Shown here in pieces: positions 2,287 through 22,633 of a stretch of 42,102 nt of DNA (positions are counted from its first letter, which is position 1; each line of letters starts with the position of its first letter). Below the pieces are notes generated by a model. That model ran no database searches and had not been told where the DNA came from. It saw only the letters and a program-made list of their open reading frames with translations. A program made the position numbers and the translations under genes. Source of the DNA: Puia dinghuensis (GTDB lineage: Bacteria; Bacteroidota; Bacteroidia; Chitinophagales; Chitinophagaceae). The stretch lies in contig JAMFSL010000213.1 in NCBI GenBank assembly GCA_026225275.1, positions 1 through 42,102 on the forward strand, given 5' to 3'.

Positions 2287-2808
2287 TTGCTTAGTGTAAA
2301 GGAATTAAAGGATGGTAATGAATTTTACTTCAAACAAGTATTTGAACAATACCATCAAAAGCTTTATTTCTTCATCCTAAACAAAACTAAGTCGGAATAT
2401 ATAACAGAGGAGGTTGTGCAGATGGCATTTACGAAACTTTGGCAATGCCGACAAACCTTGCAGGAGGAATACACTATTTCCACACAGTTGTTCAGGATCG
2501 CCACTACCACACTTATTGATTATTTGCGAAAGTATAATAATAAGGAGGCGATAACTGGTCGTCTCGATGGGGTAAATATTGAAAAAGGGGTTGACAGTAC
2601 AAATGAAAAAATGAGCGGAGCCGAATTACAAAAGAGAATATCGGAAGCCGTTAATGATCTGCCCCCGGTAAGAAAGCAGGTATTTGAGATGAGCCGCGAG
2701 CAAGGTATGTCATATAGAGAAATCGCTGAAACCTTATCTGTTTCTTCCAGGACGGTGGAAACGCATATTTACAAGGCGCTGAAGCAGATAAAAAAACATA
2801 TAATTTGA
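2287..2808 (+). CDS. ECF RNA polymerase sigma factor, FecI-like
   Basis: The product is 173 residues. Region 2 is at about 15-85 (FKQVFEQYHQKLYFFILNKT, then EEVVQMAFTKLW and a DYLRKY helix) and region 4 at about 110-170 (LPPVRKQVFEMSREQGMSYR, then EIAETLSVSSRTVETHIYKAL). It belongs to the Bacteroidota sigma-70 family that pairs with FecR-type anti-sigma factors, and the next gene is exactly that. The only plausible start is the TTG at 2287, because an in-frame stop lies at 2269 and no ATG occurs before region 2. TACATTCG at 2231-2238 resembles a -7 box with one mismatch. Its stop overlaps the start of the anti-sigma gene (TTGA), so translation is coupled. It presumably activates the TonB receptor downstream. 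Confidence 0.85.
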   Translation: MLSVKELKDGNEFYFKQVFEQYHQKLYFFILNKTKSEYITEEVVQMAFTKLWQCRQTLQEEYTISTQLFRIATTTLIDYLRKYNNKEAITGRLDGVNIEKGVDSTNEKMSGAELQKRISEAVNDLPPVRKQVFEMSREQGMSYREIAETLSVSSRTVETHIYKALKQIKKHII

Positions 2809-3776
2809 TAACAGAGGAAACCATAAAAAACATAGACGTAGAAGAATGGGAGAATTTCCAACCTCCACATGATCTATCCGCCGATATATCCAGCAAGCTG
2901 TGGAATAACGTAAATAAAAATATTGCTTTTCCCGCAATACATTATGCTTATTTGAGATGGATCGCAGTGGCGGCATCGGTTTTATTGGTTATAGGCCTTT
3001 CCTGGCGTGCTACTTTGAAAAAACAAAAGACAAGCGTACCCAGTGTTGAAACTGTTGCGACTGTTGGGACAACAAAGAAAATCTTCAATAATAGGACTCA
3101 AAAAATGATGCTGACGCTAGGCGACGGTTCTACAGTAGAACTTTCACCTAACAGTACGCTGTCTTATCCCGAAAACTTCAACGTTTCAAAGAGGGATGTA
3201 ACATTGGATGGCGAAGCAACTTTCGATGTAGCTAAAGATGCAGCTAAAATCTTTTCCGTGCAAGGCCATTCTCTTTTAATCACTGTTTTAGGCACGCGTT
3301 TTACGGTAAGAACTTATGAGGCGAATAGTGCCGCAAAAGTAATTTTGCATGAAGGAAGGATAATGGTAAAGATCTTCGATTCCTCTTCCCTGCACAATAA
3401 AAACGGCTATTACCTCACTGCCGGCGATATTTTTATATTAAAAAAGGTAAATCTGCCTTCTCGTATCAACAATGCAGAGCGTATTGCAACTCCGTCGACT
3501 ATTTCGGCCGATTCCCTGTCGGTTCGAATCTTACACCTTGAAAAAGATAAAGATGATTGCTACGTATTCAACAACCCCCCTCTCGATGTAGTATTTGACC
3601 AATTACAGATTATCTATAATACAAAGATCATCTATAATAAAGCAGAACTAGGCAATCGGACGTTTATCGGGAAAATAGATAGAAAAGATTCGCTCTATCA
3701 TATATTGAAAAGCATTTCCCTGCTCGATAACTTTACTTTACGTCAACAAGGCGACAGCTTCGTCATAGGCAATTAA
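2805..3776 (+). CDS. FecR-like anti-sigma factor
   Basis: The product is 323 residues: a short cytoplasmic N-terminus, one membrane span at about 48-64 (RWIAVAASVLLVIGLSW), a FecR domain at about 95-195 (LGDGSTVELSPNSTLSYPEN, FDVAKDAAKIFSVQGHS, LGTRFTVRTY), and a C-terminal secretin/TonB-short-N-type module (DUF4974-like) at about 250-320 (FNNPPLDVVFDQLQIIYNTK). It should hold the sigma factor at the inner membrane and read the state of the outer-membrane receptor through its periplasmic part. The start is a TTG inside the sigma stop (TTGA, 2805-2808), which makes this a coupled pair. There is no ATG near the N-terminus that keeps the cytoplasmic sigma-binding part. Confidence 0.85.
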   Translation: MITEETIKNIDVEEWENFQPPHDLSADISSKLWNNVNKNIAFPAIHYAYLRWIAVAASVLLVIGLSWRATLKKQKTSVPSVETVATVGTTKKIFNNRTQKMMLTLGDGSTVELSPNSTLSYPENFNVSKRDVTLDGEATFDVAKDAAKIFSVQGHSLLITVLGTRFTVRTYEANSAAKVILHEGRIMVKIFDSSSLHNKNGYYLTAGDIFILKKVNLPSRINNAERIATPSTISADSLSVRILHLEKDKDDCYVFNNPPLDVVFDQLQIIYNTKIIYNKAELGNRTFIGKIDRKDSLYHILKSISLLDNFTLRQQGDSFVIGN

Positions 3777-3903
3777 TCAAGTCCAGATCATTTTAATAGT
3801 TATTGGCACTCTCCTTATTAAGTTAATATTAACAGTCAGGGTAAGCTCCAACTACTGCGTATAATAAAGAAATAAAATCTTTATAACGTAGAATAAGTCT
3901 ATT

Positions 3904-6636
3904 ATGATCAGATCAATAACCAAAATCCGACTGCTCCTTTCCATTCTATTTTTGGGCCTCTGCTGTCATATTCAGTTGATTGCCAATGCGCAAAAAATCA
4001 ATGAAATAAAGGGGCAGGTGTTTGACGAGAGCGGACAGCCTGTTGCTTACGCGTCTGTCGTTGCCAAAAACCAAAGTACCGGCCAAAGTGCAAGCACACA
4101 AACAGATTCATTAGGTGTTTTCATTTATCGCAATTTGGCCGCCGGCGGTCCTTATTCCTTTATTGTCTCACACGTAGGTTTTCAAACTCAAACATTAGCC
4201 GGCTATAACATAAAAACCGATGCCGATATAACCTTATTGATCAAGTTAAAAGCGATAGAGAATGGTTTAAATGAAATTATTGTTACCGGCCGTGCAGGTG
4301 CGCTGAATCGCACAAAGCTTCAAACAAGCTATTCAGTCACCAGCATTGGTTATAATGCGCTGAGCTTACAGGAGCCTACAAGTGTTACCGAGAGTCTGAA
4401 ATCAGTACCAGGGTTCTGGGTTGAGGCTTCCGGAGGTGAGGCGAGTGGTAATGTAAGAGCAAGAGGGGTTCCTGTGGATGGTTTCGGATCAATCCAGTTG
4501 TTGGAAGACGGAATTCCTGTACAGCACGACCCGGCCTTAGGCTATCTTAACGCAGACCAAGCCTTTCGTTTCGATGAGACCATTCAATCTATTGAAGTTG
4601 TCCGTGGCGGTCCCTCTTCCGTATTTTATTCCAATGCGCCGGCAGGAGCAGTCAACTATATTCCCCGTGCCGTTGGTGATAAGACAGAGGGGATTTTTAA
4701 GCTGAGCGTAGGAGATGACAATCTTAACAGAGAAGATTTCTGGATAGGAGCTCCTCTCGGTGATGGGTGGAAATTGGCTACCGGCGGGTTTTACCGCACA
4801 GGGACAGGGGCGCGTAATCCTGGTTACACCGGCAATCGTGGTGGGCAGATCAGAGCTACTATCGGCAAGAGCTGGGAAAAAACAAGCGTTAGTATTGACT
4901 ATAAGCAATTGAATGATGATGTGATATTTTATACAGATATGCCCATGACCTATAATAGCAAAGGGAAAATAGTAGCTGTACAGGGTTTTAATGGTAACTA
5001 CGGCGCTATTGCAGGCCCTGAAACCGAAAGAATGAACATGGTTCAAGGGGACAGCAGTCTTTACCATTATGATAATACGGTTGGAACGTCAGTCAACAGA
5101 AGCCAGGTTACGATTAAATTTCAGACCGATCTTGGTGATAATTGGATCCTGAAGAATTCGCTTCGGTACTCCAACACCCAAACCCAACGCAATGGAGTAT
5201 ATGCGCTAAATTTATTAACTGCCGATTCCTTTTATAAGGCTCAATCGAGCCTATTGTCACAAGCCCCTGGTGCCACGAAATTAGGGTTCCAATATGCGAC
5301 TACAGGCACAGCATTCAATAATGCCAATCAAAATGGCAATGGCCTTGTCATTCAAGGCGGATTAAGAGGCATTACCATGCCTCAGACAGAAGCTGACAAC
5401 GATCTTCACCTTTCGCATGTTTTTTATATGGGTTCATCCAAGCATGATTTTAATTTAGGATATTATTATGCTCATTTCAATCAAAACTTCAGCAGATATT
5501 CTTCAGATGTATACCTGGACGTTCAAAATCAGTCAAGATTGTTGAATATCGTAGGCATAGATGGCAATGGAAATGTAGTAAAAACTTTTTCCAGCAATGG
5601 AGTATCCCGATATGGATATGAGTGGGCGGACGCCAATGGTGAACAGACAACGCAGGCACTTTATGTTAGTGATGAATGGCAGATAACACATGCCTTTCGT
5701 ATCGATGGCGGCGTGCGTTGGGAGTATGCGCAAACGGATGGCGTTGTAGAACAATCGCAGACTGTAAACCTGGGTACATACGCCACATCCCAGATAACGA
5801 CAGGAAACGGGGAATGGCTGGGCTATAACCATCATTTTGACTACACTACCTGGACAGTGGGAGCGGATTATCAGCTTTCCCCCAATATGGGTCTTTTCGG
5901 CAGGTATACATCTGCAGCACGCCTTCCCGGATTTGGCACTTACTATACCAATGTCAGCTCGGCAGCCGTTACTCAGACCATGCAACTAGGTGAGCTGGGA
6001 TACAAATATGCCAGCAGTCTATTGTCTTTTTATGGTACCGGATTCTATACAAGGTATAATAACGTCGGCTTTACCAATGAAGTGAGCACCTTGAACGGCT
6101 TCACCCAGGTAAATGCCTTTGCGAATACAAATGCATATGGCCTTGAACTCGAGGGCAGTATATTTCCGGTACAATGGTTCGATGTTACGGCGACAGCGAC
6201 GTTGCAGCATGGGGTATATGAGGGGCTTAAGGCCGAGGCCGTTTCCGGAGGCACGCTGACACAATCATACAATTACAATGGCAATCGGCTGATCAGAGTA
6301 CCGCAAGCCTCTGTCAGAGCCGTTCCGGGATTCAATCTCTTTCGTAACCGCCTTCGTCTGCAATCGGCCATAGAATACGAAGGAAAACGCTACACTGACG
6401 TCGCTAACACTCAGGTTCTTCCCGCCTATACGAAAGTCGATATCGATGCTTCGGTAAAAGTGACCAATGAAATTTCAGTTTTTGGCGTTATTGATAATCT
6501 TACTAATTCCTTAGGACTTACGGAAGGTAATCCACGCCAAGGTGAAATCCAAAGTCAGGAGGCCAACCAATTTTATTTCTTAGCCCGTCCGATATTGGGA
6601 AGAAGTTTCAAAATTTCTATACGGTATAAGTTTTAG
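3904..6636 (+). CDS. TonB-dependent outer-membrane receptor
   Basis: The product is 910 residues. A signal peptide spans about 1-29 (cleavage near NAQ). A CarboxypepD_reg-like beta domain lies at about 34-115 (IKGQVFDESGQPVAYASVVA). The plug covers about 135-255 (TSVTESLKSVPGFWVEASGG, RARGVPVDGFGS, IEVVRGGPSSVFYSNAPAGA), followed by a 22-strand barrel that ends in ISIRYKF with the C-terminal Phe needed for outer-membrane assembly. The layout resembles iron-complex receptors rather than SusC, and no SusD gene follows. The FecA-type STN signalling domain expected for a receptor beside FecI/FecR is missing; its place is taken by the carboxypeptidase-like domain. The ligand is unknown; a siderophore or other chelate is most likely. 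The gene ends in a strong terminator and its transcript probably starts in the 127-bp gap after FecR. Confidence 0.88.
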   Translation: MIRSITKIRLLLSILFLGLCCHIQLIANAQKINEIKGQVFDESGQPVAYASVVAKNQSTGQSASTQTDSLGVFIYRNLAAGGPYSFIVSHVGFQTQTLAGYNIKTDADITLLIKLKAIENGLNEIIVTGRAGALNRTKLQTSYSVTSIGYNALSLQEPTSVTESLKSVPGFWVEASGGEASGNVRARGVPVDGFGSIQLLEDGIPVQHDPALGYLNADQAFRFDETIQSIEVVRGGPSSVFYSNAPAGAVNYIPRAVGDKTEGIFKLSVGDDNLNREDFWIGAPLGDGWKLATGGFYRTGTGARNPGYTGNRGGQIRATIGKSWEKTSVSIDYKQLNDDVIFYTDMPMTYNSKGKIVAVQGFNGNYGAIAGPETERMNMVQGDSSLYHYDNTVGTSVNRSQVTIKFQTDLGDNWILKNSLRYSNTQTQRNGVYALNLLTADSFYKAQSSLLSQAPGATKLGFQYATTGTAFNNANQNGNGLVIQGGLRGITMPQTEADNDLHLSHVFYMGSSKHDFNLGYYYAHFNQNFSRYSSDVYLDVQNQSRLLNIVGIDGNGNVVKTFSSNGVSRYGYEWADANGEQTTQALYVSDEWQITHAFRIDGGVRWEYAQTDGVVEQSQTVNLGTYATSQITTGNGEWLGYNHHFDYTTWTVGADYQLSPNMGLFGRYTSAARLPGFGTYYTNVSSAAVTQTMQLGELGYKYASSLLSFYGTGFYTRYNNVGFTNEVSTLNGFTQVNAFANTNAYGLELEGSIFPVQWFDVTATATLQHGVYEGLKAEAVSGGTLTQSYNYNGNRLIRVPQASVRAVPGFNLFRNRLRLQSAIEYEGKRYTDVANTQVLPAYTKVDIDASVKVTNEISVFGVIDNLTNSLGLTEGNPRQGEIQSQEANQFYFLARPILGRSFKISIRYKF

Positions 6637-6874: not shown

Positions 6875-7765
6875 TTAGTTAGGTATATATTTTTTAAACT
6901 GATTAGGAGTCATATCTGTCTCCTTCTTAAAAAGTCTCGAAAAATAGGATAAATCTCCAAACCCAAGTTCATAGGCAATTTCAGAAACCCGCTGATCATT
7001 GCCCCTGAGGCGGTTCTTGGCTTCGTTTATAAGGTAAATATGGATCAATTCCATAGCGGTTTTACCCGTTTCCTGTTTCAGCATATCGCTAAGGTAGCGG
7101 GGTGACAAGTTAAGTTGCGAGGCCAAAGTGCTTACGTTGGGCAACCCCTGATCAAGCAGTAACCCGGTCTCAAAATGAGTAGCCAGAACATCATTAAACT
7201 TTGATACGGTTTTACCGGAAAGTTCGGTACGGTTTATAAACTGGCGTTTATAGAAACGCTGCGAATATTTCAGCATTGAACCAATATGCGCCAGCATTAT
7301 GTCGCGACTATATTCATCATTATTAGCCAGATATTCGGTATCTATCTTGTAAAAAAGATCCCACATGATCTGTTCTTCACGTGGAGAAAGATGTAATGCT
7401 TCGTTTGCCTCATAATCAAAAAAAGCATATTTGCTGATCTCATTGTGCAGAACGTGGCCGTTCAAAAAATCTTCATGAATGAATATGACGAATGAGTCTT
7501 CGTGATATTCCAGGCCTTTAAACTGAATAATTTGCCGGGGTTTGAAAAATATCATGCAGCCGTTGTCATGGTCATATTTAGTACGCCCGTACATAATGAT
7601 GCCAGATATAAGCTTTTTAAGACTGATTATATAGAAATCAGAGGTAAACACTTTTTCACCCAACGAGGTGTTTTTAGGGCACCTATAAACGCTAAAGAGT
7701 GGATTTTCCGGCATCGGGAGGCCATTAAAGCGATGCATCTCGGCCAAACTACTAAAGTGCTGCAT
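6875..7765 (-). CDS. AraC family transcriptional regulator
   Basis: The product is 296 residues. The N-terminal part (about 20-165) looks like an AraC_binding cupin-type sensor (GCMIFFKPRQIIQFKG, FVIFIHEDFLNGH). The C-terminal part (about 195-294) holds two helix-turn-helix motifs (VSTLASQLNLSPRYLSDMLK and VSEIAYELGFGDLSYFSRLF), followed by the family signature KKETDMTPNQFKKY. This type often controls a short-chain dehydrogenase and NTF2-like genes in Bacteroidota; pieces of just such genes lie on both sides (7778-7969 and 6718-6837). The regulator itself looks intact, but its original targets here are broken, so it may be an orphan. The inducer is unknown. Confidence 0.88.
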   Translation of the reverse strand: MQHFSSLAEMHRFNGLPMPENPLFSVYRCPKNTSLGEKVFTSDFYIISLKKLISGIIMYGRTKYDHDNGCMIFFKPRQIIQFKGLEYHEDSFVIFIHEDFLNGHVLHNEISKYAFFDYEANEALHLSPREEQIMWDLFYKIDTEYLANNDEYSRDIMLAHIGSMLKYSQRFYKRQFINRTELSGKTVSKFNDVLATHFETGLLLDQGLPNVSTLASQLNLSPRYLSDMLKQETGKTAMELIHIYLINEAKNRLRGNDQRVSEIAYELGFGDLSYFSRLFKKETDMTPNQFKKYIPN

Positions 7766-7777
7766 GATTTTTTGTTT

Positions 7778-7969
7778 TTATTTGCCTTGTGCTGCTACTG
7801 TCATTTCCTGCCAGCTATTCCAGTCGGCATGCCGGCTGTCATATTCTTTCTTAACCAACAAAGGAGCGTATTTTCCGAGCAGTAAACGCAACGGAGGGTT
7901 TTCGCTATCAATTAATTTCAATATAGCAGCTATCGTGCCGGCCGCAACACCGCGAAAATCAGGCGGCAT
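7778..7969 (-). pseudogene. C-terminal fragment of a short-chain dehydrogenase (SDR)
   Basis: A 63-residue minus-strand frame (MPPDFRGVAAGTIAAILKLI, then DSENPPLRLLLGKYAPLLVK and a basic tail) matches the last 50-60 residues of classical SDR oxidoreductases, where the ESENPPLRLLLG stretch forms the final strand and helix. No Rossmann glycine motif or YxxxK is present. A stop codon (TAA) lies two codons before the apparent start, so the catalytic part is gone and expression is unlikely. The fragment ends 12 bp before the AraC start codon. Confidence 0.65.
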
Positions 7970-8644: not shown

Positions 8645-9892
8645 TCATGTGAGCCAGACAGCTCCCAATGCTGCAACCAGCGCCACGGTCATGACGAGTG
8701 CACCGGTCTTTAAAAAGCTCCAGGTGCTGACGGTTTGACCTTCCCGGCGTAACGCGACCAGCCACAGGATGGTGGCCAGCGACCCGGTGATCGATAGGTT
8801 CGGGCCGAGGTCCACGCCGATCAGCACGGCACGTTGGACCATCCCTGGTACATGGCTGGTTTGCAGGACCTGGCCGGAGATCAGGCCAACCGGCAGGTTG
8901 TTCATCAGATTGGAGGCTACGGCTATGCTTGCGCCGCTTGCCCAGGCCGACGCGGCGGTCGATTGGCTGACGCCCCGGTGCAGCCATCCCGACAACGTAT
9001 CAATCAGGCCGGTGTTGCCCAGGGCTTCCACGATTACGAACAGACCTGCCACGAGCGGGATCACGGACCAGGAAATGCCCTTGATGACGGTCCAGGGCGT
9101 CTTTCTTGTTCGGACCAGGACGATGCCGGACGTCAATATACCGGTGATGGCTGTGGGCAGGCCGAGTTTTAGGTCCAAACCTGAAGCGACGAGCAGGGCA
9201 GCGCCCGTTCCGCCGATACCCCATAGCGCGAGTTTTCCGCCGGGTGATAGCACGGGTTGGGGAATATCGGTGGCAATCTCCTGGCGTAGCTGTCTGCGTT
9301 GGGTCCACCGCAGCATCAAAAAAGTGATGACGATGGATAAAATTGATGGTGCCGTGTATTGCATCAGCCAGCGAAGCAACGGCGGCATATGGGTGCCGTA
9401 GATGACCAAGTTGGCGGGGTTGGAAATCGGCAGTACGAAAGATGCCGCATTGGCAATAAAGGCGCAAATCAGGAGGTAAGGCAGGGGCCGCTCGACCTTT
9501 GCCACGCGCATCGCGGCTGCTACGGCAGGCGTTAGTACCACCGCCGTCGCATCGTTGGAGAGGAATATGGTAACGATAGTGCCTACTCCGTAGATCAGCA
9601 GGAATAGTCTTCCGGGGGAACCCTTTGCCCGCCTGGTGGCATGGGCCGCCAGCCAGTCGAATAGTTTTTCCTCTCTGGCCGTCTCGGCGAGCAGCATCAT
9701 GCCGGTCAGGAAAAGATATACGTCCGTTCCTTTGGCTATGCCTTTCAGTTCCTCTGAAGGGGAAAGCAGCCTTAAGACCAGCAGCAATAGCGCGCCGGCC
9801 ACGGCCCAAACAGCTTCGGGTACCCGGAAAGGCCGGATGATGACCGCGCCGATGGATACGATCGAAATGATCCAGATGGTTATTTGCGTCAT
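8645..9892 (-). CDS. ArsB-like arsenite/anion permease of the ion-transporter superfamily
   Basis: The product is 415 residues with about ten to eleven membrane spans in two halves. It has features of the ArsB/NhaD (SLC13-like) superfamily: GTDVYLFLTGMMLLAETARE in the first half, the hairpin FLSNDATAVVLTPAVAAAMR, ISNPANLVIYGTHMPPLLRW, and the second-half equivalent ASNLMNNLPVGLISGQVLQ. These paired SND/SNxxNN hairpins form the substrate site. Family members export arsenite/antimonite or move other anions; no arsR, arsC or arsA is nearby, so substrate identity is inferred. Its ATG overlaps the stop of the 48-residue gene upstream (ATGA), and an MFS gene precedes that, so all three form one operon. 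A matching operator upstream of that operon links it to the two-component system at 11.3-13.4 kb. Confidence 0.8.
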   Translation of the reverse strand: MTQITIWIISIVSIGAVIIRPFRVPEAVWAVAGALLLLVLRLLSPSEELKGIAKGTDVYLFLTGMMLLAETAREEKLFDWLAAHATRRAKGSPGRLFLLIYGVGTIVTIFLSNDATAVVLTPAVAAAMRVAKVERPLPYLLICAFIANAASFVLPISNPANLVIYGTHMPPLLRWLMQYTAPSILSIVITFLMLRWTQRRQLRQEIATDIPQPVLSPGGKLALWGIGGTGAALLVASGLDLKLGLPTAITGILTSGIVLVRTRKTPWTVIKGISWSVIPLVAGLFVIVEALGNTGLIDTLSGWLHRGVSQSTAASAWASGASIAVASNLMNNLPVGLISGQVLQTSHVPGMVQRAVLIGVDLGPNLSITGSLATILWLVALRREGQTVSTWSFLKTGALVMTVALVAALGAVWLT

Positions 9893-10047: not shown

Positions 10048-11262
10048 TTAAAAATGATCACAACTTTTTTTGAGCATGGGTGAGTATAGGCACCAAAGGA
10101 AGATGGATATGAGGGCAAGCGATCCCAGCAAAAGGAAGGTGGACGGGTAACCGATCCCCTGGGCGATCCAGCCGCCGATGGCGGGACTCAAAGAGGCACC
10201 CAAGCCCTGTACGGTCATGACCGCTCCCTGTCCTATGTTGATCCTTCCCGTTCCATTTAAGATCCGGGCCACCAGCCCCGGCACGGCGACGCTTTGCAGT
10301 CCCGCGCCGATCCCATCGAGGATCTGCACCGGGTAGAGGCCGGTATGATTGATCCAATGGGCTGCGATCAGGCCACGGATCGGGAGCGCCAAAAAAGAAA
10401 TGAGCATCACCAGCCAATAACCGCGTTTATCCGCCATCCGCATAGCCACAAGTGATGCCACCACCATCACGAGCTGCGCAATCACAATCGTCATGGCGAC
10501 AAATACAGAGGGGTTTCCCTGGTGATTGCCGGCGGCGGCCAGCCCGTATAATGGCAACATGGCCCCGTTGCCCAGGTGAAAGAAAGCCAGGGCCGCAGCC
10601 AGGATCAGCAGCGGCTTACATTCGACAAGGACCTTCAGACCGCTGGCCTTGCCGCTCCCGTCGTCTTTTTCCAATCCGCGTGCCGCCCGGTCGTCGATGG
10701 CCCTGGCAGGAATCAGCAGCACAGACGCTATGGACAAGACCCCGAAAAATGCCGCCAAAATGAAAATGGCCGGCATCCCGAAGCGGTATCCCAGCCAGCC
10801 CGATAAAGCAGCGCCTGCCACATTACCCGCATGATTATACGCCTGGTTATGCCCGTTCTGCCGGTTGAAGCCTTTTTGCCGGACGATGCCCAGCGTAATC
10901 CCGATCACTGCCGGGCCGATCACAGAGCCCGCAATAGCGGTCGCCACCTGCGAAATGCTGACCAGCCAGAAATTTTGTGAGAAAAGAATGATCGCTGAAG
11001 CGATGGCCGTGAAAATGGCGGAGATCACTACATACATGCGTTTGCGGCAAGTGCCGTCGATCAGTGCGCCGGCCGGGGCCGTCATGAGCATGCCCGCCAC
11101 GCCGCCAATAGTCATCACGGTGCCGATGGGTCCGCTTTCCCAGCCATGGGCCAGCAGGAAGATGCCCAGGAAGGGGCCAATACCCGCTTGCAGGTCGGCC
11201 ATGAAGAAGTTCAGGGCTTCGAGGGATCGAATGGTGGACCGGTTGGTGAGAGCAATGTTCAT
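10048..11262 (-). CDS. Major facilitator superfamily (MFS) transporter
   Basis: The product is 404 residues with twelve predicted spans in two six-helix halves. The conserved loop 2-3 region reads AGALIDGTCRKRMYVVISAI, a variant of GxxxDRxGRR, and the counterpart in the second half is MRMADKRGYWLVMLISFLAL. A soluble loop (RAIDDRAARGLEKDDGSGKA) separates the halves. A TTG start seven codons upstream is possible, but the ATG at 11262 is preferred. It heads the MFS/48-residue/ArsB-like unit, about 70 bp after the histidine kinase. The gap contains a 33-bp sequence that is repeated in front of the operon at 15.5 kb. Export of a toxic ion or compound is likely; the substrate is unknown. Confidence 0.85.
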   Translation of the reverse strand: MNIALTNRSTIRSLEALNFFMADLQAGIGPFLGIFLLAHGWESGPIGTVMTIGGVAGMLMTAPAGALIDGTCRKRMYVVISAIFTAIASAIILFSQNFWLVSISQVATAIAGSVIGPAVIGITLGIVRQKGFNRQNGHNQAYNHAGNVAGAALSGWLGYRFGMPAIFILAAFFGVLSIASVLLIPARAIDDRAARGLEKDDGSGKASGLKVLVECKPLLILAAALAFFHLGNGAMLPLYGLAAAGNHQGNPSVFVAMTIVIAQLVMVVASLVAMRMADKRGYWLVMLISFLALPIRGLIAAHWINHTGLYPVQILDGIGAGLQSVAVPGLVARILNGTGRINIGQGAVMTVQGLGASLSPAIGGWIAQGIGYPSTFLLLGSLALISIFLWCLYSPMLKKSCDHF

Positions 11263-11306
11263 TTGACGTTGATATATACGCAAAGGAAAGACAGAGAGAT
11301 AAAGCT

Positions 11307-11339
11307 GGGATGAAAGTGAAATTAAGTTTCCTTCATGTA
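11307..11339 (-). promoter_or_regulatory. Putative response-regulator operator, copy 2 (before the MFS gene)
   Basis: This 33-base stretch matches 15611-15643 at 27 of 33 positions by hand count. Read on the minus strand, the shared core is TACATGAAG, two bases, CTTAAT, five bases, then TTCAT. CTTAAT and TTTCAT sit eleven bases apart, the direct-repeat spacing typical of OmpR/PhoB-family regulators. It begins inside the last codons and stop of the histidine kinase and ends 44 bases before the MFS start codon. Confidence 0.6.
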
Positions 11340-12676
11340 CGATTCAGTGGTATTTCTACCTGCACCGTAAAAAGATGATGGACGCTGTGCAGGGTAAGAG
11401 TTCCCTTGTGCAGCCGGACGATCTCGCTGCAAAGCCATAGGCCCAGGCCGGCGCCCCGCTGGAGCGTGTCGCCACGGTAAAACGCTTCTTGTAACTGGGC
11501 TGTATCTACTTGTTCTTCGGGTATGCTGTTTTCCATTTCTATGAACATAGTTTGCCTTTCAGCCGGCTTTCGAATGCGGCAGGTGATGGTCGTGCCGGGA
11601 ACTGAATATTTGACGGCATTTTCCAGCAGGTTGAGTAGGACGATGCAGATCTTATCTTCGTCGGCGTCGAGGAAGTAACCGTCGGCTTCGGGATCGAATT
11701 GGATAGAGGGGGTGAGGTGTTTGGCGGTGAGGAAGATCATAAGCTGATTGAAAATGCGAATGATGCAAGTGGATAGGTCGAAGTGGGTGGTTCGGAGCGT
11801 TAGTGTCCCCTCTTTGAGCTGGCTGATGACCAGGAATTCATCGACCCGCTCCTGGAGGCGTTTTATTTCGGCGAGCTGGCTGTGCAGGAGCTGACGGATG
11901 TCTTCGCGGATCCCGGGTTGGTTGAGGTTGAGTTCCAGTTCTGCACGCAGCACGGCCAGCGGAGTCTTTAGTTCATGGGAAGCGGAAGCAAAAAAGTTTT
12001 GTTGTTGACGGAGCGCATCGGCAATGCGGGTTAGCATGGCATTGAGCGTTTCGGTGAGTTCTTGCAGTTCATCACGGGTGTCGCGGACGGGAATGAGATT
12101 GCGGAGACGGTTGGAGGTGATGGACCTGGCCGTTTCGATGATGCGTTGCAGGGGGCGTAGCAGGACCCCTGCCAGCAGATAGGAGACGCAACCTGCGATC
12201 AGTACGCTGAAGAGACTGCTGATAAAAAGGCGGTAAATCAGCGAATGGATGCGTTCGGTGAGGGGTGCGGCGCTGGTGACCAGCAGCAGCTCTGCGGGGT
12301 TGTCCTCTGCATTGGTGCCGGTGTTTCGGACATAGGCGATGCGCATGCCCAGCGTGTCGGAGACGCCGGGTTGCACCGGGACCTGGATACCATCGGGCAG
12401 ACCGGGTGACTCGAAGACAAGCCGGTACTGGGCGTTGAGATGATAGAACACGCGTATATAGTTGCCTTTATCGGGCAGCGGGATGATGGCGGGATTGACT
12501 TCTGTTTTTTCCAGCAGAGAGGCGGCGCGGGCAAGCAGGTAGCGGTCGTTGTCCTCTATTAAAAGGGCGCGGATATGCTGGTAGTTGTCGGCATTGAAGA
12601 TCAGCGCCAGTGCAGTAAAGACGGCGCTGAAGGACAAGGTCATTTTGATCTTTATGCCGATGCGCGCTGGTTGCAT
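11333..12676 (-). CDS. HAMP-domain sensor histidine kinase (OmpR-partner class)
   Basis: The product is 447 residues: span 1 at about 10-28, a periplasmic domain of roughly 120 residues, span 2 at about 149-172 (IYRLFISSLFSVLIAGCVSY), HAMP at about 172-225 (LLRPLQRIIETARSITSNRL), HisKA with phosphoacceptor His234 (FASASHELKTPLAVLRAELE), and a HATPase domain with N box (NLLENAVKYS) and G2 box (GAGLGLWL). The organisation is that of the CusS/QseC-like family, sensors of metals or envelope stress. It starts three bases after the response regulator stop. The periplasmic sensor part shows no recognisable metal-binding cluster, so the signal is unknown. It is followed by a copy of the 33-bp operator that overlaps its own stop codon. 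Confidence 0.9.
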   Translation of the reverse strand: MQPARIGIKIKMTLSFSAVFTALALIFNADNYQHIRALLIEDNDRYLLARAASLLEKTEVNPAIIPLPDKGNYIRVFYHLNAQYRLVFESPGLPDGIQVPVQPGVSDTLGMRIAYVRNTGTNAEDNPAELLLVTSAAPLTERIHSLIYRLFISSLFSVLIAGCVSYLLAGVLLRPLQRIIETARSITSNRLRNLIPVRDTRDELQELTETLNAMLTRIADALRQQQNFFASASHELKTPLAVLRAELELNLNQPGIREDIRQLLHSQLAEIKRLQERVDEFLVISQLKEGTLTLRTTHFDLSTCIIRIFNQLMIFLTAKHLTPSIQFDPEADGYFLDADEDKICIVLLNLLENAVKYSVPGTTITCRIRKPAERQTMFIEMENSIPEEQVDTAQLQEAFYRGDTLQRGAGLGLWLCSEIVRLHKGTLTLHSVHHLFTVQVEIPLNRT

Positions 12677-12679
12677 GGT

Positions 12680-13363
12680 TTATCCTTTTGTGAGGGTGCC
12701 TTTGATGGTGTACCCCCGGCCTACGACGGTCTGGATCAGCGGGGTCTCAAATCCTTTATCAATCTTTTTTCTAAGCTGGTACATATGCACCTCCACCACA
12801 TTGCTGCCGGGGTCGAAGTCAACGTTCCAGACCTTATCGAGGATTTGCGTTTTGGTGATGACCTGGCCCGCACGGCTCATCAGCAGCTCCAGGATACCGA
12901 ATTCCCGATTACTGAGGATGATGGGCTGGCTGTCCCGCGTGGCTTCGCGGGTCAGGACGTTGATCTCAAGGTCGTCGATCCTGAGCAGCGGGGAGAATTG
13001 ATCGGTCTGGCGACGCTGGACGGCGCGGACACGCGCCAGTAGTTCATTGAGGTCGAAGGGCTTTTTGATGTAGTCGATGGCGCCGAGGTCGAGGCCTTTG
13101 ATGATCTGGTCGGTGTCGCTAAGGGCGCTGAGGATGATGACGGGTGTTTTGTTTTTGAAATTTCGCATGTTGCGCAGCACTTCAAAGCCGTCGAGGGTGG
13201 GCAGCATGAGGTCGAGGATGACGAGGTCATATTCGCCGATCATGGCCGCTTCAAGCCCTTGTGATCCATCGCTAAAGTGTTCACAAAGATGGCCTGCCTG
13301 CCGGAGGGCGGAGGCAACAAAGCCGGCCAGTTTTATTTCGTCCTCTATGAGCAATATTTTCAT
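12680..13363 (-). CDS. OmpR/PhoB-family response regulator
   Basis: The product is 227 residues. The receiver domain spans 1-115 with acidic pocket Glu7-Asp8, phosphoacceptor Asp51 (LVILDLMLPTLDGFEV), the conserved switch Ser79 and Lys101 (DYIKKPFDLNELLARV). The winged-helix DNA-binding domain spans about 130-224 (ILSNREFGILELLMSRAGQV, VEVHMYQLRKKID, VVGRGYTIKG). It should be phosphorylated by the kinase encoded three bases downstream and bind 11-bp direct repeats. The shared 33-bp elements at 11307 and 15611 are good candidates. Its ATG overlaps the stop of the membrane-anchored FPPH paralogue (ATGA), which ties the paralogues and the two-component system into one operon. Confidence 0.93.
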   Translation of the reverse strand: MKILLIEDEIKLAGFVASALRQAGHLCEHFSDGSQGLEAAMIGEYDLVILDLMLPTLDGFEVLRNMRNFKNKTPVIILSALSDTDQIIKGLDLGAIDYIKKPFDLNELLARVRAVQRRQTDQFSPLLRIDDLEINVLTREATRDSQPIILSNREFGILELLMSRAGQVITKTQILDKVWNVDFDPGSNVVEVHMYQLRKKIDKGFETPLIQTVVGRGYTIKGTLTKG

Positions 13364-14070
13364 CTGACTAAAAAGGTTTTGTGGTCGATGGTGAGGCTGA
13401 GGACGATATAGACTTTGTCGTGGTTGATGTTGACGAAACCGAAATCTTCGCTGCGGCGGACGGCGCTGAGGGTAATGGTTTTGGCGGATTTGATCAGGCC
13501 GGCAATGTCGTCTACCAGGCCGGGTTTGAAATGGAAGAGCTGGTTGCCATTGCGGATGCCGTCGATGCCGCCGTAAGGATCGGTGAGCAATTGGGGATTG
13601 GCTACGGTAAAGTTCTCCGTGGTGTAATTTAGGGGAACATCGGGCGGCGGGGGCAGGGCGTCGAGGTCGGCATCGTCGTGTGTTCGAAGATTTTTGATGC
13701 GGTGTAATTGATAGACGATATACTCGTCATTGGGATGGGAGCCGGTGACGATCTCGACGGAATCACCGATGGGAGCATGATCCATGACGGTGCGGGCGGT
13801 GTGCGGCCGGAAGTCTGCGGTTATGATGCCTTCCTTTACGGTTTTTAGCTCGATGGCGTTGACATCGAGGTGGGCGTTATACTTGTAACCGAGGACCAGG
13901 CCCTGACGGGTCTTCATGTTTTCGGGAGCTCCGAGATTTTCGGGCGGACCGGATGGTGGATGCATATCAGTGTCAGGAGGCGGGGGTGCAGGCATGGGAC
14001 GGCGGAGCAGGAGAAAACCTACGCCGGCAAGTAGCAGTATGAAGACGATGAGTAGGATGTTTTTTACCAT
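13360..14070 (-). CDS. Membrane-anchored paralogue of an uncharacterised FPPH-motif beta-domain family
   Basis: The product is 236 residues: an N-terminal membrane helix at about 4-22 (NILLIVFILLLAGVGFLLL), a Pro-rich linker (RRPMPAPPPPDTDMHPPSGP), then two related beta-rich modules. Module 1 (about 57-110) reads GLVLGYKYNAHLDVNAIEL and ends FRPHTARTVMDHAPIGDSVE. Module 2 (about 150-236) has FHFKPGLVDDIAGLIKSAKT and ends GFVNINHDKVY with a SLTIDHKTFLVR tail. The PHTAR/GD pattern and the GFVN tail recur in the next gene upstream (14201-14782), and the PH motif also in 14801-15526. The modules look like OB-fold-type barrels; no function is known to me. It overlaps the response regulator start by four bases. 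The side of the membrane on which the modules lie is ambiguous, because the helix has basic residues on both flanks. Confidence 0.7.
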   Translation of the reverse strand: MVKNILLIVFILLLAGVGFLLLRRPMPAPPPPDTDMHPPSGPPENLGAPENMKTRQGLVLGYKYNAHLDVNAIELKTVKEGIITADFRPHTARTVMDHAPIGDSVEIVTGSHPNDEYIVYQLHRIKNLRTHDDADLDALPPPPDVPLNYTTENFTVANPQLLTDPYGGIDGIRNGNQLFHFKPGLVDDIAGLIKSAKTITLSAVRRSEDFGFVNINHDKVYIVLSLTIDHKTFLVR

Positions 14071-14159
14071 TTTTTTAGATCATATAGAGGGAAAATGGGC
14101 TGCCGGAACAGGATGGGTATAGCCAAAGGAATGCCATAACGGACAGGGCCGATGTATTA

Positions 14160-14191
14160 CCTCCGCGTCGGCGGGTAGCACAACGCGGAGG
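14160..14191 (-). other. GC-rich hairpin between two FPPH paralogues
   Basis: CCTCCGCG (14160-14167) and CGCGGAGG (14184-14191) form a perfect eight-pair GC-rich stem with a 16-base loop. No T-run follows on the minus strand. It lies in the 130-bp gap between the cytoplasmic and membrane paralogues and may be a processing or stabilising element in the operon mRNA. Confidence 0.45.
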
Positions 14192-14200
14192 TGTGTGAAC

Positions 14201-14782
14201 TTAATTTTTCCCGATGTGAAGGGAATGGGCATGGTAGACGGAATAGCCTTCGGCATTGACAAAGCCGGCATCGGCGATCCGTTTTTTGGCCTTGACCTGG
14301 AGGACGGCGGCGGACACCAGCGCCTTTTCTCCTTCTTCGTATTCCTCGGGATGGAGGTGGATATACTTGTCTTCAAAGATGACGCCGGTGATCTCGTCGT
14401 GTTTCCCGCCTCGGGTGAACTTGGGTTTGGAAATAGTAAAGGGGACCAGGCGACCGGTCTCGGGGGGATGTGGCGGCTCAACGGATTCGACGCTGAACTG
14501 CTGCCGGGTGCTGGTGTTCTCGATGGAGGCAAGGTGAAGCCTGGGTTTTGTATGGTCGTGTCCGTGATGCGGCGGGTGGGGCTTGTCAAGCAGGACAAGC
14601 TGGACGGTATCGCCTTCAGCGGCTACCTCGCGGACGAACCGGGCGGTATGAGGTGGAAATTTTATGTCCATCAGGTCCCCCTGCTCGTCGATGACCAGGC
14701 CATCGATGTCATTGTGCTTATTGCTGGTGTAGCGCGCGATGGCTCCCCTGACTTCCCGGGTGTGTTGTTTTGCTTTTTTCAT
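14201..14782 (-). CDS. Cytoplasmic, His-rich paralogue of the FPPH-motif family
   Basis: The product is 193 residues with no signal peptide or membrane span. Module 1 (about 10-65) reads GAIARYTSNKHNDIDGLVI and then IKFPPHTARFVREVAAEGDT, with the FPPH motif at 42-45. A His-rich linker (KPHPPHHGHDHTKPRLHL, about 67-84) could bind metal. Module 2 (about 115-193) has EITGVIFEDKYIHLHPEEYE and ends GFVNAEGYSVYHAHSLHIG, the same tail as in the membrane paralogue. It starts 18 bp after the secreted paralogue's stop, so the two are cotranscribed. The paralogy is directly visible in the FPPHTAR/PHTAR and GFVN motifs. Metal binding is inference from the histidines. Confidence 0.7.
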   Translation of the reverse strand: MKKAKQHTREVRGAIARYTSNKHNDIDGLVIDEQGDLMDIKFPPHTARFVREVAAEGDTVQLVLLDKPHPPHHGHDHTKPRLHLASIENTSTRQQFSVESVEPPHPPETGRLVPFTISKPKFTRGGKHDEITGVIFEDKYIHLHPEEYEEGEKALVSAAVLQVKAKKRIADAGFVNAEGYSVYHAHSLHIGKN

Positions 14783-14800
14783 TGTATGATGATTTTGATA

Positions 14801-15526
14801 TTATCGGATTATATAGGTCTGTCCGTTGAGAGTAAGGGTTTGGGGATGGATGATTTGAGCGTTCTGTGCGAGAACGACGCCGGGAGGTGGTGTTAGACGT
14901 GATCCGGAGCCGGAGACTTGTGTGCCTGGTTTCAGATACGCCTGGAGTTGATCGTAGACACCTGGCGGAAGTTCGACGACGCGGCTGCCAGATAATACAA
15001 GGCCGTTGGGTATACCTTGCCTGTCCCGGCGCAGGTCCGTAATGGCGCCGTTAAAGGACTGTATGGTTTCGGCTGGCGGATTGGCAGGCGCCGGGGGTGG
15101 GCCGTCGTAAATGGTTTGGTTGCCCGAAGTGGCATTGACAAGATGGATGACGTTCATGCCTTCGGGGGTGGTTTCATAAAACCCCTGTACGCTGATGGCG
15201 GTCCCGGCTTTGGCTGCGCCCATCATTTGCGCCGCCAGGTGGGGAGCAAATCGGATGTTGAAAGATTGGCCGCCGTTTTGTACGGTGAGACCGTCGTATT
15301 GATTGCTGTCGCTGGCAGTGTAAGCGTTCAGGGTACCCGGAACGGTGATAAGCTGTTGGACAGGGCGGTCTCCGGGACGATCAGGGCCATCGGGTACTCC
15401 GGGAGGCGGTGAGGTTCTGAGGGGACCGGCAAGCTGGGGAGGCGGTGCCGGGGGTTGCGAATAGGCATAAATAGTGGGCAGTGTCACGGAAAGGATAACG
15501 AGGGCGGTTTTAATAAAGCATTTCAT
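14801..15526 (-). CDS. Secreted paralogue of the FPPH-motif beta-domain family
   Basis: The product is 241 residues with a signal peptide (about 1-24, cleavage near YAYSQ) and a Pro-rich linker. Module 1 (about 62-116) reads GTLNAYTASDSNQYDGLTV and then NIRFAPHLAAQMMGAAKAGT. Module 2 (about 158-210) reads NGAITDLRRDRQGIPNGLVL and then VVELPPGVYDQLQAYLKPGT. It ends LTLNGQTYIIR. The repeated G..(Y).. G-L... F-P-P/A-P-H ... GT/D..V pattern shows an internal duplication and matches the two following genes. It should be periplasmic or exported. It is the first gene of the minus-strand operon; a 33-bp putative operator lies 85 bases upstream. No enzymatic motif is seen, so a ligand-binding or scaffolding role is a guess. 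Confidence 0.7.
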   Translation of the reverse strand: MKCFIKTALVILSVTLPTIYAYSQPPAPPPQLAGPLRTSPPPGVPDGPDRPGDRPVQQLITVPGTLNAYTASDSNQYDGLTVQNGGQSFNIRFAPHLAAQMMGAAKAGTAISVQGFYETTPEGMNVIHLVNATSGNQTIYDGPPPAPANPPAETIQSFNGAITDLRRDRQGIPNGLVLSGSRVVELPPGVYDQLQAYLKPGTQVSGSGSRLTPPPGVVLAQNAQIIHPQTLTLNGQTYIIR

Positions 15527-15610: not shown

Positions 15611-15643
15611 GGAATGAAGGTGTGATTAAGATTGCTTCATGTA
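15611..15643 (-). promoter_or_regulatory. Putative response-regulator operator, copy 1 (before the FPPH operon)
   Basis: This is the partner of 11307-11339 (27 of 33 bases shared). On the minus strand it contains TACATGAAG, then CTTAAT, five bases and CTTCAT, an 11-bp direct repeat as bound by OmpR-type regulators. TAGCTTCG on the minus strand about 20 bases downstream resembles the TAnnTTTG -7 box with one mismatch, so the site would overlap the -33 region. The 313-bp divergent gap (15527-15839) also holds the promoter of the receiver gene at 15840; nothing else is visible there. Confidence 0.6.
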
Positions 15644-15839: not shown

Positions 15840-16193
15840 ATGAAACGGATTATGTACGTCGACGATGAGGTGGACCTTTTGGAGGCGATGAAGATTTTCC
15901 TGCGCCGAAAAGGCTTTGAGGTAAGAGTAACAACTTCCTGTAGCGAAGGATTGGAGATCCTTCGTACTTTCAATCCCGATTTGATTTTATTGGATGTTAA
16001 CGTGGGCAGCGAGGACGGACGGGTCATGTGCCGCCAGATAAAGGCGCAGGCGGAGTATAAGCACATTCCGGTGATCCTGATCTCGGCCTACGACGACGCC
16101 CTGAAGACGTACCGCGACTATGGGGCGGATAGTTTTGTGGGGAAGCCCTTCGAGTTTTCGGAGCTTATGGATACCATGAATGTTTATCTCTAA
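15840..16193 (+). CDS. Stand-alone response regulator receiver
   Basis: The product is 117 residues and consists of a CheY-like receiver only: acidic pocket Asp8-Asp9-Glu10 (MYVDDEVDLLEAM), phosphoacceptor Asp52 (LILLDVNVGSEDGRVMCRQI), switch Ser82 and Lys102 (SFVGKPFEFSELM). No output domain is attached. It is followed after ten bases by a PAS histidine kinase, so the two are cotranscribed and should form a phosphorelay, with the receiver acting as a phosphate sink or signalling by protein contact. It is transcribed divergently from the FPPH operon, whose operator lies in the shared gap, so co-regulation is possible but not shown. Confidence 0.92.
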   Translation: MKRIMYVDDEVDLLEAMKIFLRRKGFEVRVTTSCSEGLEILRTFNPDLILLDVNVGSEDGRVMCRQIKAQAEYKHIPVILISAYDDALKTYRDYGADSFVGKPFEFSELMDTMNVYL

Positions 16194-16203
16194 TCCCTAA
16201 CGT

Positions 16204-17763
16204 ATGGTAGAATCGGAAAAACCGGCCCCCGGTGTGCCTGATTTGATGACGGCGATAGTGCAGTCTTCTGAGGATGCGATTATTTCCAAGTCATTGGATA
16301 GTGTGATCACCAGCTGGAACCCGGCTGCGGAGGCGCTTTTCGGTTATACGGCCCAGGAAGCGATCGGGCACGTCATGTCGGAAATGATCCTCCCCGATCA
16401 ATCTGCGGCGGAGGAAAAGGTGATGGACCGGCTCCGGAACGGGGAACGGGTGGCGCACTATGATGCGCGACGGATCACGAAGGAGGGGCGGGTGCTGAAC
16501 TTGTCGCTGACGGCTTCGGCGATCCGGGATGGTGACGGAAACCTGGTGGGGGTGTTGAAGGTGGTCCGGGATGTGACGGAGCGAAAGAAAGCGGAACAGG
16601 CGGCAAAGGAAAACGAGGAAAAATACCGGCTGGCGCTGGCGACGGCGCAAATCGGGACCTGGTCGTACGAGCCGGCTTCTTCAGAGATCGCTGTCTCGGC
16701 TGAGGTTCGGAGGCTTTATGGGCTGCCGGATGGCGTGCGGCTGGATTTGAAAACGATGGAGGGCCGGGTGCATCCGGAGGATGTACACCTGGTTCGGGAA
16801 GCGAGGGCCCGGGCATTCGACCCTGCCAATCAGGGGCACTATGCGGTGGAGCACCGGATTATTACCTATGAAAGTCAGGAGGTCAAGTGGACCAGGGTGA
16901 GGGGAAAGGCCTATTTTGATGCGGCAGGCAGGCCGGAGAAGCTGTTCGGGACGTTTCTGGACGTGACGGACGAAAGGATGGCGAAGGAGGAATTGGAGCG
17001 GAAGGTGGCGGAAAAGACGATGGACCTGCAACAGGCGAACGAGCAATTGCGCCGGTCAAATTTCGACTTGCAACAATTCGCCTATGTGGCCAGCCATGAT
17101 TTGCAGGAGCCTTTGAGACGCATACGCTTGTTTGCCGACCTGTTGCGGAAAAGAGGTGAATTGAAGGAAGATGCGGCTACCTACGTGGACAAGATCAATC
17201 AGCTCTCGGCCCGGACGGCGAATCTGATCCGGGGGGTGCTGGATTATTCCCGGCTGGGGACACAGGGAGAATTGATCGGTGATGTAGACCTTCGGGAATT
17301 GTTAGCAGATGTGTCGGCGGACTACGAGGACATGATCGCGGGTAAAGGAGCCCACATACAGCACGAAGGGTTGAGGATCGTGCCGGGAATTTCTACTCAA
17401 TTGCGGCAGCTATTTTCAAACCTGATTGGTAATTCCCTGAAATTTTGCGGGGAGAAGCCGGAGATCTGGATCCGGGCGCGACCCCTGCCGCTGGAGGAAC
17501 GCGCCCGGTATGGGTCGCTGGATGGGTCGAGGGAATACGTGGAACTGGTGTTTACGGATAACGGCGTGGGATTCGATGAAAGGTTTGCGGAGAGGTTGTT
17601 TGTGATGTTCCAGCGTTTGCACAACGAGGAACAGTATAAGGGGACGGGGATCGGCCTGGCGCTGTGTAAGAAGATCGTGGAGAATCATGGTGGACATATC
17701 AGGGGAGAGGGAAAGGTAGGGAAGGGTGCGATGTTTACGGTGGTGCTGCCGGTGAAGAAGTAG
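16204..17763 (+). CDS. PAS-domain sensor histidine kinase, cytoplasmic
   Basis: The product is 519 residues without membrane spans. PAS 1 lies at about 13-130 (ITSWNPAAEALFGYTAQEAI, ending GVLKVVRDVTERKKAE). PAS 2 with its PAC segment lies at about 138-262 (IGTWSYEPASSEI, ending LFGTFLDVTDER). A coiled coil follows at about 262-290, then HisKA with His298 (FAYVASHDLQEPLRRIRLFA), and a HATPase domain with N box (NLIGNSLKF), G1 (DNGVGFDERFAERLF) and G2 (GTGIGLAL). The DLQEPLR H-box and FVMFQRLH stretch are typical of the phytochrome-related soluble kinase group. Cofactors of the PAS domains cannot be predicted. It lies ten bases after the receiver gene. GC-rich codons match the neighbouring FPPH operon. 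Confidence 0.92.
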   Translation: MVESEKPAPGVPDLMTAIVQSSEDAIISKSLDSVITSWNPAAEALFGYTAQEAIGHVMSEMILPDQSAAEEKVMDRLRNGERVAHYDARRITKEGRVLNLSLTASAIRDGDGNLVGVLKVVRDVTERKKAEQAAKENEEKYRLALATAQIGTWSYEPASSEIAVSAEVRRLYGLPDGVRLDLKTMEGRVHPEDVHLVREARARAFDPANQGHYAVEHRIITYESQEVKWTRVRGKAYFDAAGRPEKLFGTFLDVTDERMAKEELERKVAEKTMDLQQANEQLRRSNFDLQQFAYVASHDLQEPLRRIRLFADLLRKRGELKEDAATYVDKINQLSARTANLIRGVLDYSRLGTQGELIGDVDLRELLADVSADYEDMIAGKGAHIQHEGLRIVPGISTQLRQLFSNLIGNSLKFCGEKPEIWIRARPLPLEERARYGSLDGSREYVELVFTDNGVGFDERFAERLFVMFQRLHNEEQYKGTGIGLALCKKIVENHGGHIRGEGKVGKGAMFTVVLPVKK

Positions 17764-22621: not shown

Positions 22622-22633
22622 ATTTAGCACGAT

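What the first reader, a model, noticed from the sequence alone, without database searches (positions are those of the whole stretch)
13360..15526. Three paralogous FPPH-motif proteins in three cell compartments, coupled to a two-component system
Seen: three consecutive genes share an internally duplicated module (F-x-PH, then a Gly-Asp/Thr turn; GFVN tails in two of them), yet one has a signal peptide, one a membrane helix and one neither. The last overlaps the response regulator by ATGA. The cytoplasmic member has a His-rich linker. Inference: a sensing or sequestering system that samples the same ligand outside, at and inside the membrane, reporting to the OmpR-type pair. I know this F-P-P-H type of beta domain only as an unnamed family.
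Basis: partly seen in the sequence, partly recalled or inferred. Interest (0 to 1): 0.82.

Follow-up and report, generated by a model that had tools for sequence, protein, structure and literature searches.

The report
Tandem OB-fold proteins with two-component systems
Three sister proteins of a so far unnamed OB-fold family, one exported, one membrane-anchored and one apparently cytoplasmic, sit in one gene cluster with a sensor kinase, its regulator and two transporters; similar clusters occur in several bacterial phyla and look like a stress and export module whose ligand is unknown.

Summary
Genes C (signal peptide), B (no leader, His-rich) and A (membrane helix) are paralogues, and A overlaps the OmpR-type regulator by ATGA. 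AlphaFold models of C and B show two OB folds each; A was not folded. None passes a Pfam or NCBIfam cut-off.

Relatives found by protein sequence are followed directly by an OmpR-type regulator and kinase in 28 of 31 genome loci. In a 395-genome phylum sample, the window's kinase matches eight genomes: the six that carry the family, plus two matched only over the catalytic part. MFS and ArsB-like permeases recur.

New here: (1) an operator-like box, the best site before the first cassette gene in 25 of 27 Bacteroidota loci (held-out test), also lies before the window's MFS gene and, weakly, before C; (2) proteobacterial plasmids carry related cassettes with a NtrC-type regulator and sigma-54-like promoters (12 of 12 tested, plus one Nitrospira locus), 13 of 20 with a secreted and a leaderless member; (3) the leaderless form seems to have arisen twice.

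Most likely: ligand-binding stress proteins induced together with exporters, comparable to YgiW/QseBC and SipA/VC1638-39. Ligand and direction of signalling are unproven.

The parts
14801..15526 (-). C: exported tandem-OB protein, 241 aa (S-type, signal peptide, Pro-rich linker)
   Evidence: AF2 mean pLDDT 89.0, OB folds about 60-140 and 154-239; on the S side of the tree
14201..14782 (-). B: leaderless, presumably cytoplasmic tandem-OB protein, 193 aa, 8.3% His
   Evidence: AF2 mean pLDDT 90.2; sister of A plus its G004 homologue (96/90, 98/88; long branch, flagged as unsure)
13360..14070 (-). A: membrane-anchored homologue, 236 aa (M-type), overlapping the regulator by 4 bases
   Evidence: 53% identical to the G004 homologue, which has the same overlap; not folded
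12680..13363 (-). OmpR-type response regulator
   Evidence: Pfam Response_reg 1.9e-26 and Trans_reg_C 1.2e-24
11333..12676 (-). Sensor histidine kinase (HAMP, HisKA, HATPase_c) with NPAIIPLP after its first membrane segment (by eye)
10048..11283 (-). MFS transporter, same strand, 49 bases after the kinase
   Evidence: PF07690 1.6e-35
8645..9892 (-). ArsB/CitMHS-type permease, same strand, 155 bases after MFS
   Evidence: CitMHS 4.2e-44, ArsB 1.8e-31; recurs at related loci
11307..11328 (-). Operator-like box before the MFS gene (AACTTAATTTCACTTTCATCCC)
   Evidence: score 24.2 with a matrix trained without the window; best hit of the whole window, 27.0
15611..15632 (-). Weaker operator-like box before C (ATCTTAATCACACCTTCATTCC)
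   Evidence: scores 11.6 and 14.5, against 14.3 for an unrelated hit at 22631; repeat pattern visible

Best explanation
A two-component-controlled ligand-handling and export module. Shown by computation: tandem-OB proteins (C and B folded; A by homology), one exported, one membrane-anchored and one leaderless, lie in one same-strand cluster with an OmpR-type regulator, a kinase, an MFS transporter and an ArsB/CitMHS-type permease; the family goes with this kinase lineage; operator-like boxes precede the MFS gene and, weakly, C. Inferred: the kinase senses exposure of the envelope to a toxic ion or small molecule; the phosphorylated regulator binds the repeated boxes and induces OB proteins and transporters; C captures ligand in the periplasm, A holds it at the membrane and may feed back on the kinase, B buffers what reaches the cytoplasm, and the MFS and ArsB-like proteins export it. 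Anchoring (lipid or helix) and loss of the leader place the same binding domain where the ligand is.
Against: No ligand is known, and OB folds bind many things. The box before C is weak. The two planctomycete loci show no such box (best 6.1 and 3.2), and L044 and L047 fail the held-out test. In G004 the box faces the MFS side, not A. In 4 of 20 plasmid records a leaderless member stands without a two-component pair in the stretch, as does the single member of L095, and a Spirosoma plasmid cassette has no pair in the stretches read. MFS or ArsB-like genes appear in only 13 of 31 loci in the stretch printed. G017 has a kinase fragment at a contig end and no detected family member. Transport direction is unknown.
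Confidence: 0.5

Rival explanations
1. Upstream sensor: the OB proteins are ligand receptors that present the signal to the kinase. The anchored A touches the sensor stretch of the kinase; C and B report outside and inside.
For: Kinase and family co-occur. A overlaps the regulator gene by 4 bases here, in G004 and in L046. The member next to the regulator is anchored in the window and in nine other two-member loci. [ND]P-x2-[ILV]-[PA]-[LI]-P near the sensor stretch is shared by 28 of 33 linked kinases (the search expression was looser than this, was chosen after seeing the alignment, and had no control set).
Against: Of the 31 loci only 8 show a second, anchored member. In the proteobacterial and Nitrospira loci the pair is of another type. 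A leaderless protein cannot reach an extracytoplasmic sensor.
Confidence: 0.25
2. Cell-envelope protection proteins that bind peptidoglycan, peptides or porins, induced by envelope stress; the transporters are co-regulated but functionally separate.
For: YgiW/VisP is reported to bind peptidoglycan, and SipA to bind peptides and OmpA (passages). Pro-rich linkers of the S-type.
Against: Leaderless members seem to have arisen twice and have no envelope target. Transporters recur with the family in both Bacteroidota and Proteobacteria.
Confidence: 0.2
3. A nucleic-acid-binding or other unrelated role; the cluster is a chance gathering of neighbours.
For: Many of the closest solved folds are nucleic-acid-binding OB proteins.
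Against: Most members are exported or anchored, and the association repeats across phyla with different regulator classes and promoter types.
Confidence: 0.05

Closest known systems
YgiW (VisP) with QseBC/PreAB; the ygiW-qseBC operon of Haemophilus
   Same: OB-fold exported protein beside an OmpR-type pair that controls it (PMC2653508 abstract and passages; PMC12737762 passages of a review)
   Different: YgiW is a single-OB BOF protein (recalled); here tandem OB modules without a BOF match, a different regulator subfamily, further copies in other compartments, linked MFS and ArsB-like genes
SipA (VCA0732) with VC1638/VC1639 of Vibrio cholerae
   Same: Two-component-dependent periplasmic OB protein that binds a toxic ligand (peptides); the mutant is sensitive to cadmium and peroxide (PMC6370654 abstract, outline and passages; PMC5636140 passages)
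   Different: One 15 kDa protein; no membrane-bound or cytoplasmic paralogues mentioned in the passages seen
CusF/SilF metal chaperones
   Different: Fold-level likeness only; metal ligands not compared
CzcR/SilR/CopR-type regulators and CzcS/SilS/CopS-type kinases
   Same: Best-scoring NCBIfam models for RR and HK
   Different: Both below the curated cut-offs

Membership tests
BOF (YgiW/YdeI) OB-fold family | Match to the family's Pfam/NCBIfam model | tested here: not met
   No BOF hit listed for A, B, C at E<=1 nor in the family table for 9 members or for 5 further members. That the model is in the libraries is assumed. Weak hits were tRNA_anti-codon, DUF5666 and others; all weak OB-protein hits are below cut-off, one search does not show scores
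BOF (YgiW/YdeI) OB-fold family | Single OB domain behind a signal peptide (recalled) | tested here: not met
   Two OB domains in C and B
OB fold (structural class) | Five-stranded barrel with a helix between strands 3 and 4 | tested here: met
   Secondary-structure order in C and B; PDB matches, VIA rows mostly covering the first domain. A not folded
Heavy-metal regulator subfamily TIGR01387 (CzcR/SilR/CopR) | Score at or above 279.2 bits | tested here: not met
   230.4 bits
Heavy-metal kinase subfamily TIGR01386 | Score at or above 292.55 bits | tested here: not met
   161 bits
QseB (PRK10336) | Score at or above 345 bits | tested here: not met
   159.6 bits
ArsB arsenite efflux (Pfam PF02040; NCBIfam PRK15445) | Curated cut-offs | tested here: inconclusive
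   Pfam ArsB 110.4 over 22.2, but CitMHS scores higher; NCBIfam ArsB 163.1 under 457
CusF/SilF metal chaperones | Conserved metal ligands | not tested
   Only fold likeness seen
QseBC-like ligand sensing by the kinase | Response to an identified ligand | not testable with these tools
   Needs experiment

The most novel reading that the evidence does not exclude
A previously undescribed cross-phylum system: tandem-OB proteins placed in different compartments (exported, anchored, cytoplasmic) handle one ligand on its way through the cell and are wired to MFS, ArsB-like and DMT exporters by whichever two-component class the lineage uses (OmpR-type with a repeated-box operator in Bacteroidota, NtrC-type with a sigma-54 promoter in Proteobacteria), the cytoplasmic His-rich form having evolved at least twice.
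Probability: 0.45. Interest if true: 0.78.

Novelty: new variant of a known kind. Interest (0 to 1): 0.64.

Why it matters
It gives an unnamed protein family a testable place: a kinase lineage, a predicted operator, predicted partner transporters, and a natural experiment in which one binding module was moved between compartments and its regulator class exchanged. It extends the YgiW/SipA theme, whose mechanism one of the papers seen here calls unclear, to members in Bacteroidota, Planctomycetota, Nitrospirota and Proteobacteria, and the regulon could reveal the ligand.

Tried and rejected
Viral contigs gave no match with C, phage records none with the L083 secreted member, PADLOC no hit for five proteins; nothing here points to a phage-borne or defence system. 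The solved-structure sequence search had best E 0.46, chance. Papers: the searches on this cassette were (others were on YgiW/QseBC and DUF486). No paper held 4 of the 5 cassette terms; 'FPPH' gave 17 papers, 12 listed, none on this family by title; the listings showed nothing on this cassette by title and start of abstract. So 'not in print' means only these searches of open-licence papers.

The third exact genome match of the relaxed box (L096, inside a fabF-like frame) is probably chance; with one mismatch allowed the pattern gave 11 hits against 6 for the reversed control. That pattern was drawn after seeing both window sites. Exact 6-mer direct repeats were inconclusive and suggested the TTCAT core used. 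In one search (27 upstream stretches: the window's C, L009 and 25 other loci) the core pair with at most one mismatch was found in 16 at period 11, but also in 13 at period 10; shuffled means 0.9 and 1.2, maxima 4 and 5. In one search (the 27 Bacteroidota loci L024-L050) the first cassette gene of L035 and L050 is a gene before the OB gene, chosen; counted strictly from the OB gene the result is 23 of 27. For L038, L040 and L048 the site touches the start of the longest frame. The 77-aa L009 frame at 7614-7847 (E 0.0042) was not treated as a member.

Rows dropped: one search left out L019, L021, L023 and L053. One search left out seven near-duplicates and plasmid loci L085, L086, L089, L090, L091, and used the last 230 residues of the long L081 frame; L080 is a Bacteroidota row under the label sec_prot there. 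One search was given 12 plasmid loci plus L054 and L051; L085, L086, L089 and L095 were not given; L051 gave no site and was left out of the count because its regulator is OmpR-type; the start used for L093 is approximate. Four orphan leaderless loci and L080, tried in the same call, gave no good sigma-54 site. Structure job A6 had 33 and A7 32 sequences. The three weak hits (G070, G091, G122) were not followed. In some searches only part of the first-look candidates were scored (up to 51 and 4 per genome), so kinases may be missed. The 464-aa regulator-like frame of L054 was seen by its N-terminus only.
Full report
What is there. On the minus strand the window carries, in order, C (15526-14801), B (14782-14201), A (14070-13360), an OmpR-type regulator (13363-12680), a sensor kinase (12676-11333), an MFS transporter (11283-10048) and an ArsB/CitMHS-type permease (9892-8645). 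The gaps are 18, 130, -4, 3, 49 and 155 bases. Regulator and kinase domains are clear. Their best NCBIfam subfamilies are the heavy-metal types, but both score below the curated cut-offs.

Relatives. A profile search of 395 genomes of the phylum found the family in 6, the window's own included. In the other five (G151, G202, G222, G305, G419) the gene stands directly before an OmpR-type regulator and a kinase. A deeper profile found the same six plus three weak hits, not followed. In the window's genus 2 of 33 genomes have it; in a sample of the order, 1 of 396, the own genome. The second genus genome, G004, keeps A with the same ATGA overlap onto the regulator, followed by the kinase, with the MFS and permease genes divergent. 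A scan of named genomes gave 31 loci. In 28 of 31 the family member is followed on the same strand by regulator and kinase. Of the other three, L032 ends 456 bases after the gene; L053 lies divergently beside a kinase and a sigma-54-type regulator; L054 has MFS, a DUF486-type gene and a kinase downstream, then a regulator-like frame. MFS or ArsB-like genes were seen in 13 of 31 in the stretch printed.

Reverse test. The window's kinase was searched in the same 395 genomes. At E<=1e-40 eight match: the six with the family (G202 up to residue 359, where its contig ends) and two, G092 and G315, that align only from residues 127 and 132 on. Hypergeometric p is 5.5e-12, or 2.7e-10 without the own genome; genomes are related, so this is a guide only. 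In the genus the kinase is found in the two genomes with the family and as a fragment at a contig end of G017, where no family member was detected.

Compartments and history. By eye, single members mostly begin with a signal peptide. Where a locus has two members, the one next to the regulator is anchored: by a lipobox in six Chryseobacterium-type loci (L021, L031, L033, L034, L039, L043) and by a hydrophobic helix in L046, L047 and L050, as in the window's A; in G004 the anchored one is the only member found. In L046 it overlaps the regulator by 4 bases too. The anchored members with the window's A and B form one side of a branch, support 97/94; B is sister to A plus its G004 homologue (96/90), but on a long branch that the program flags as unsure. 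So B most likely came from the anchored lineage by loss of the anchor.

Proteobacterial cassettes. All 20 plasmid records were opened, and one Spirosoma plasmid. 13 of 20 carry a secreted or lipoprotein-like member plus a leaderless one; 3 only the former (L076, L079, L095); 4 only the latter (L087, L090, L091, L094). A sigma-54-type regulator is in the stretch in 15 of 20, with a kinase match or annotation in 13 of these; in L077 and L086 the stretch ends at or before it. By similarity an MFS gene is there in 12 of 20 and an 'arsenic transporter' type gene in 11 of 20; metallophosphoesterase genes were matched in L082, L083 and L080, DMT genes are annotated in a few. Five of the 20 records have no gene annotation. 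In the second tree the leaderless proteobacterial members are one clade (100/94), apart from the window's B, so the leaderless form arose at least twice on this tree. His content is 3.4-7.9% in these and 8.3% in B, against 0.4-4.4% in the secreted plasmid members and 0.7-4.2% in the Bacteroidota exported and anchored members; the ranges overlap slightly and the His clusters lie at different places, so this may be convergence or coincidence.

Regulation. Upstream of the first cassette gene, Bacteroidota loci share AAATTAATTTCnnnTTCA[T/G], part of repeated half-sites about 11 bases apart that stand just before a TTTG-type promoter element (the promoter type is recalled). With at most one mismatch the two-repeat core was found in 16 of 27 upstream stretches at period 11 (shuffled mean 0.9, maximum 4), but also in 13 of 27 at period 10, so the exact period is not settled. 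Training on other groups and scanning whole loci, the single best site lay at most 120 bases upstream of the first cassette gene in 25 of 27; L044 and L047 failed; counted from the OB gene itself it is 23 of 27. The window was never in training: its best site is before the MFS gene (27.0), its second before C (14.5), the latter barely above an unrelated hit (14.3). L020 and L022, not in that training set either, score 24.7 and 23.0 before their OB genes. In G004 the site (25.8) faces the MFS side; L051 and L052 have none. In the NtrC-type loci a -24/-12 sigma-54-like promoter precedes the secreted member in 13 of 13 counted (12 plasmid loci and L054), shuffled mean 0.085, maximum 1. These are sequence matches, not proof of binding, but they make the OB genes look like outputs of the neighbouring two-component system.

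Reading. Known single-OB proteins are also outputs of two-component systems: ygiW rises 355-fold when PreA is overexpressed (PMC2653508, abstract and passages), ygiW-qseBC is autoregulated and responds to ferrous iron and, less, zinc in Haemophilus (PMC12737762, passages of a review), and SipA depends on VC1638/39 and binds antimicrobial peptides (PMC6370654, abstract, outline and passages; PMC5636140, passages). By this analogy, and with recurring transporters, the best explanation is an induced ligand-binding and export module. The sensor reading remains possible and would explain the tight coupling of A to the regulator and the shared kinase motif (28 of 33, no control).

Limits. Ligand, transport direction, operon structure and localisation are inferred. 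Flanks were about 5 kb, so transporters further away were missed. The 31 loci include close relatives. The search patterns came from three loci that already had the neighbouring pair, though selection was by protein sequence only.

Noticed in passing
L009:7135-7563 (-) and L050:4239-4661 (+): A small protein of about 140 aa with a shared G-P-x-H-K-Q-L stretch is the first gene behind the operator-like box in these two loci; no Pfam hit for the L009 copy.
   Followed up: partly
L047:5810-6241, L054:6855-7301, L020:7123-7494: DUF486 (DMT_6) small transporters recur beside the family; Pfam-confirmed for L047 and L054 only, L020 by eye.
   Followed up: partly
L080 and L107 (Spirosoma oryzicola plasmid): Cassette DMT, metallophosphoesterase, arsenic transporter and OB protein without a two-component pair in the stretches read; an MFS gene lies further upstream.
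   Followed up: partly
L087, L090, L091, L094: Leaderless family members without a neighbouring pair in Caballeronia and Paraburkholderia plasmids, three of them between a FadR-type regulator and an amidohydrolase gene.
   Followed up: no
L053:4566-5555: Member from a cyanobacterial MAG with about 75 N-terminal residues before a hydrophobic stretch and the tandem modules: possibly another way of anchoring (by eye).
   Followed up: no
L030:2324-3568 and L050:5737-6314: ArsB-like and MFS genes appear in two frames each, so they are broken or mis-sequenced.
   Followed up: no
L023:1779-2981: A 400-aa more distant relative before the same kind of regulator and kinase in G202.
   Followed up: no
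window 2805-6636: A FecR-like frame followed by a TonB-dependent-receptor-like frame (by eye).
   Followed up: no
window 15840-17763: A receiver-only protein followed by a PAS-type kinase-like frame on the plus strand, divergent from the OB cluster (by eye).
   Followed up: no
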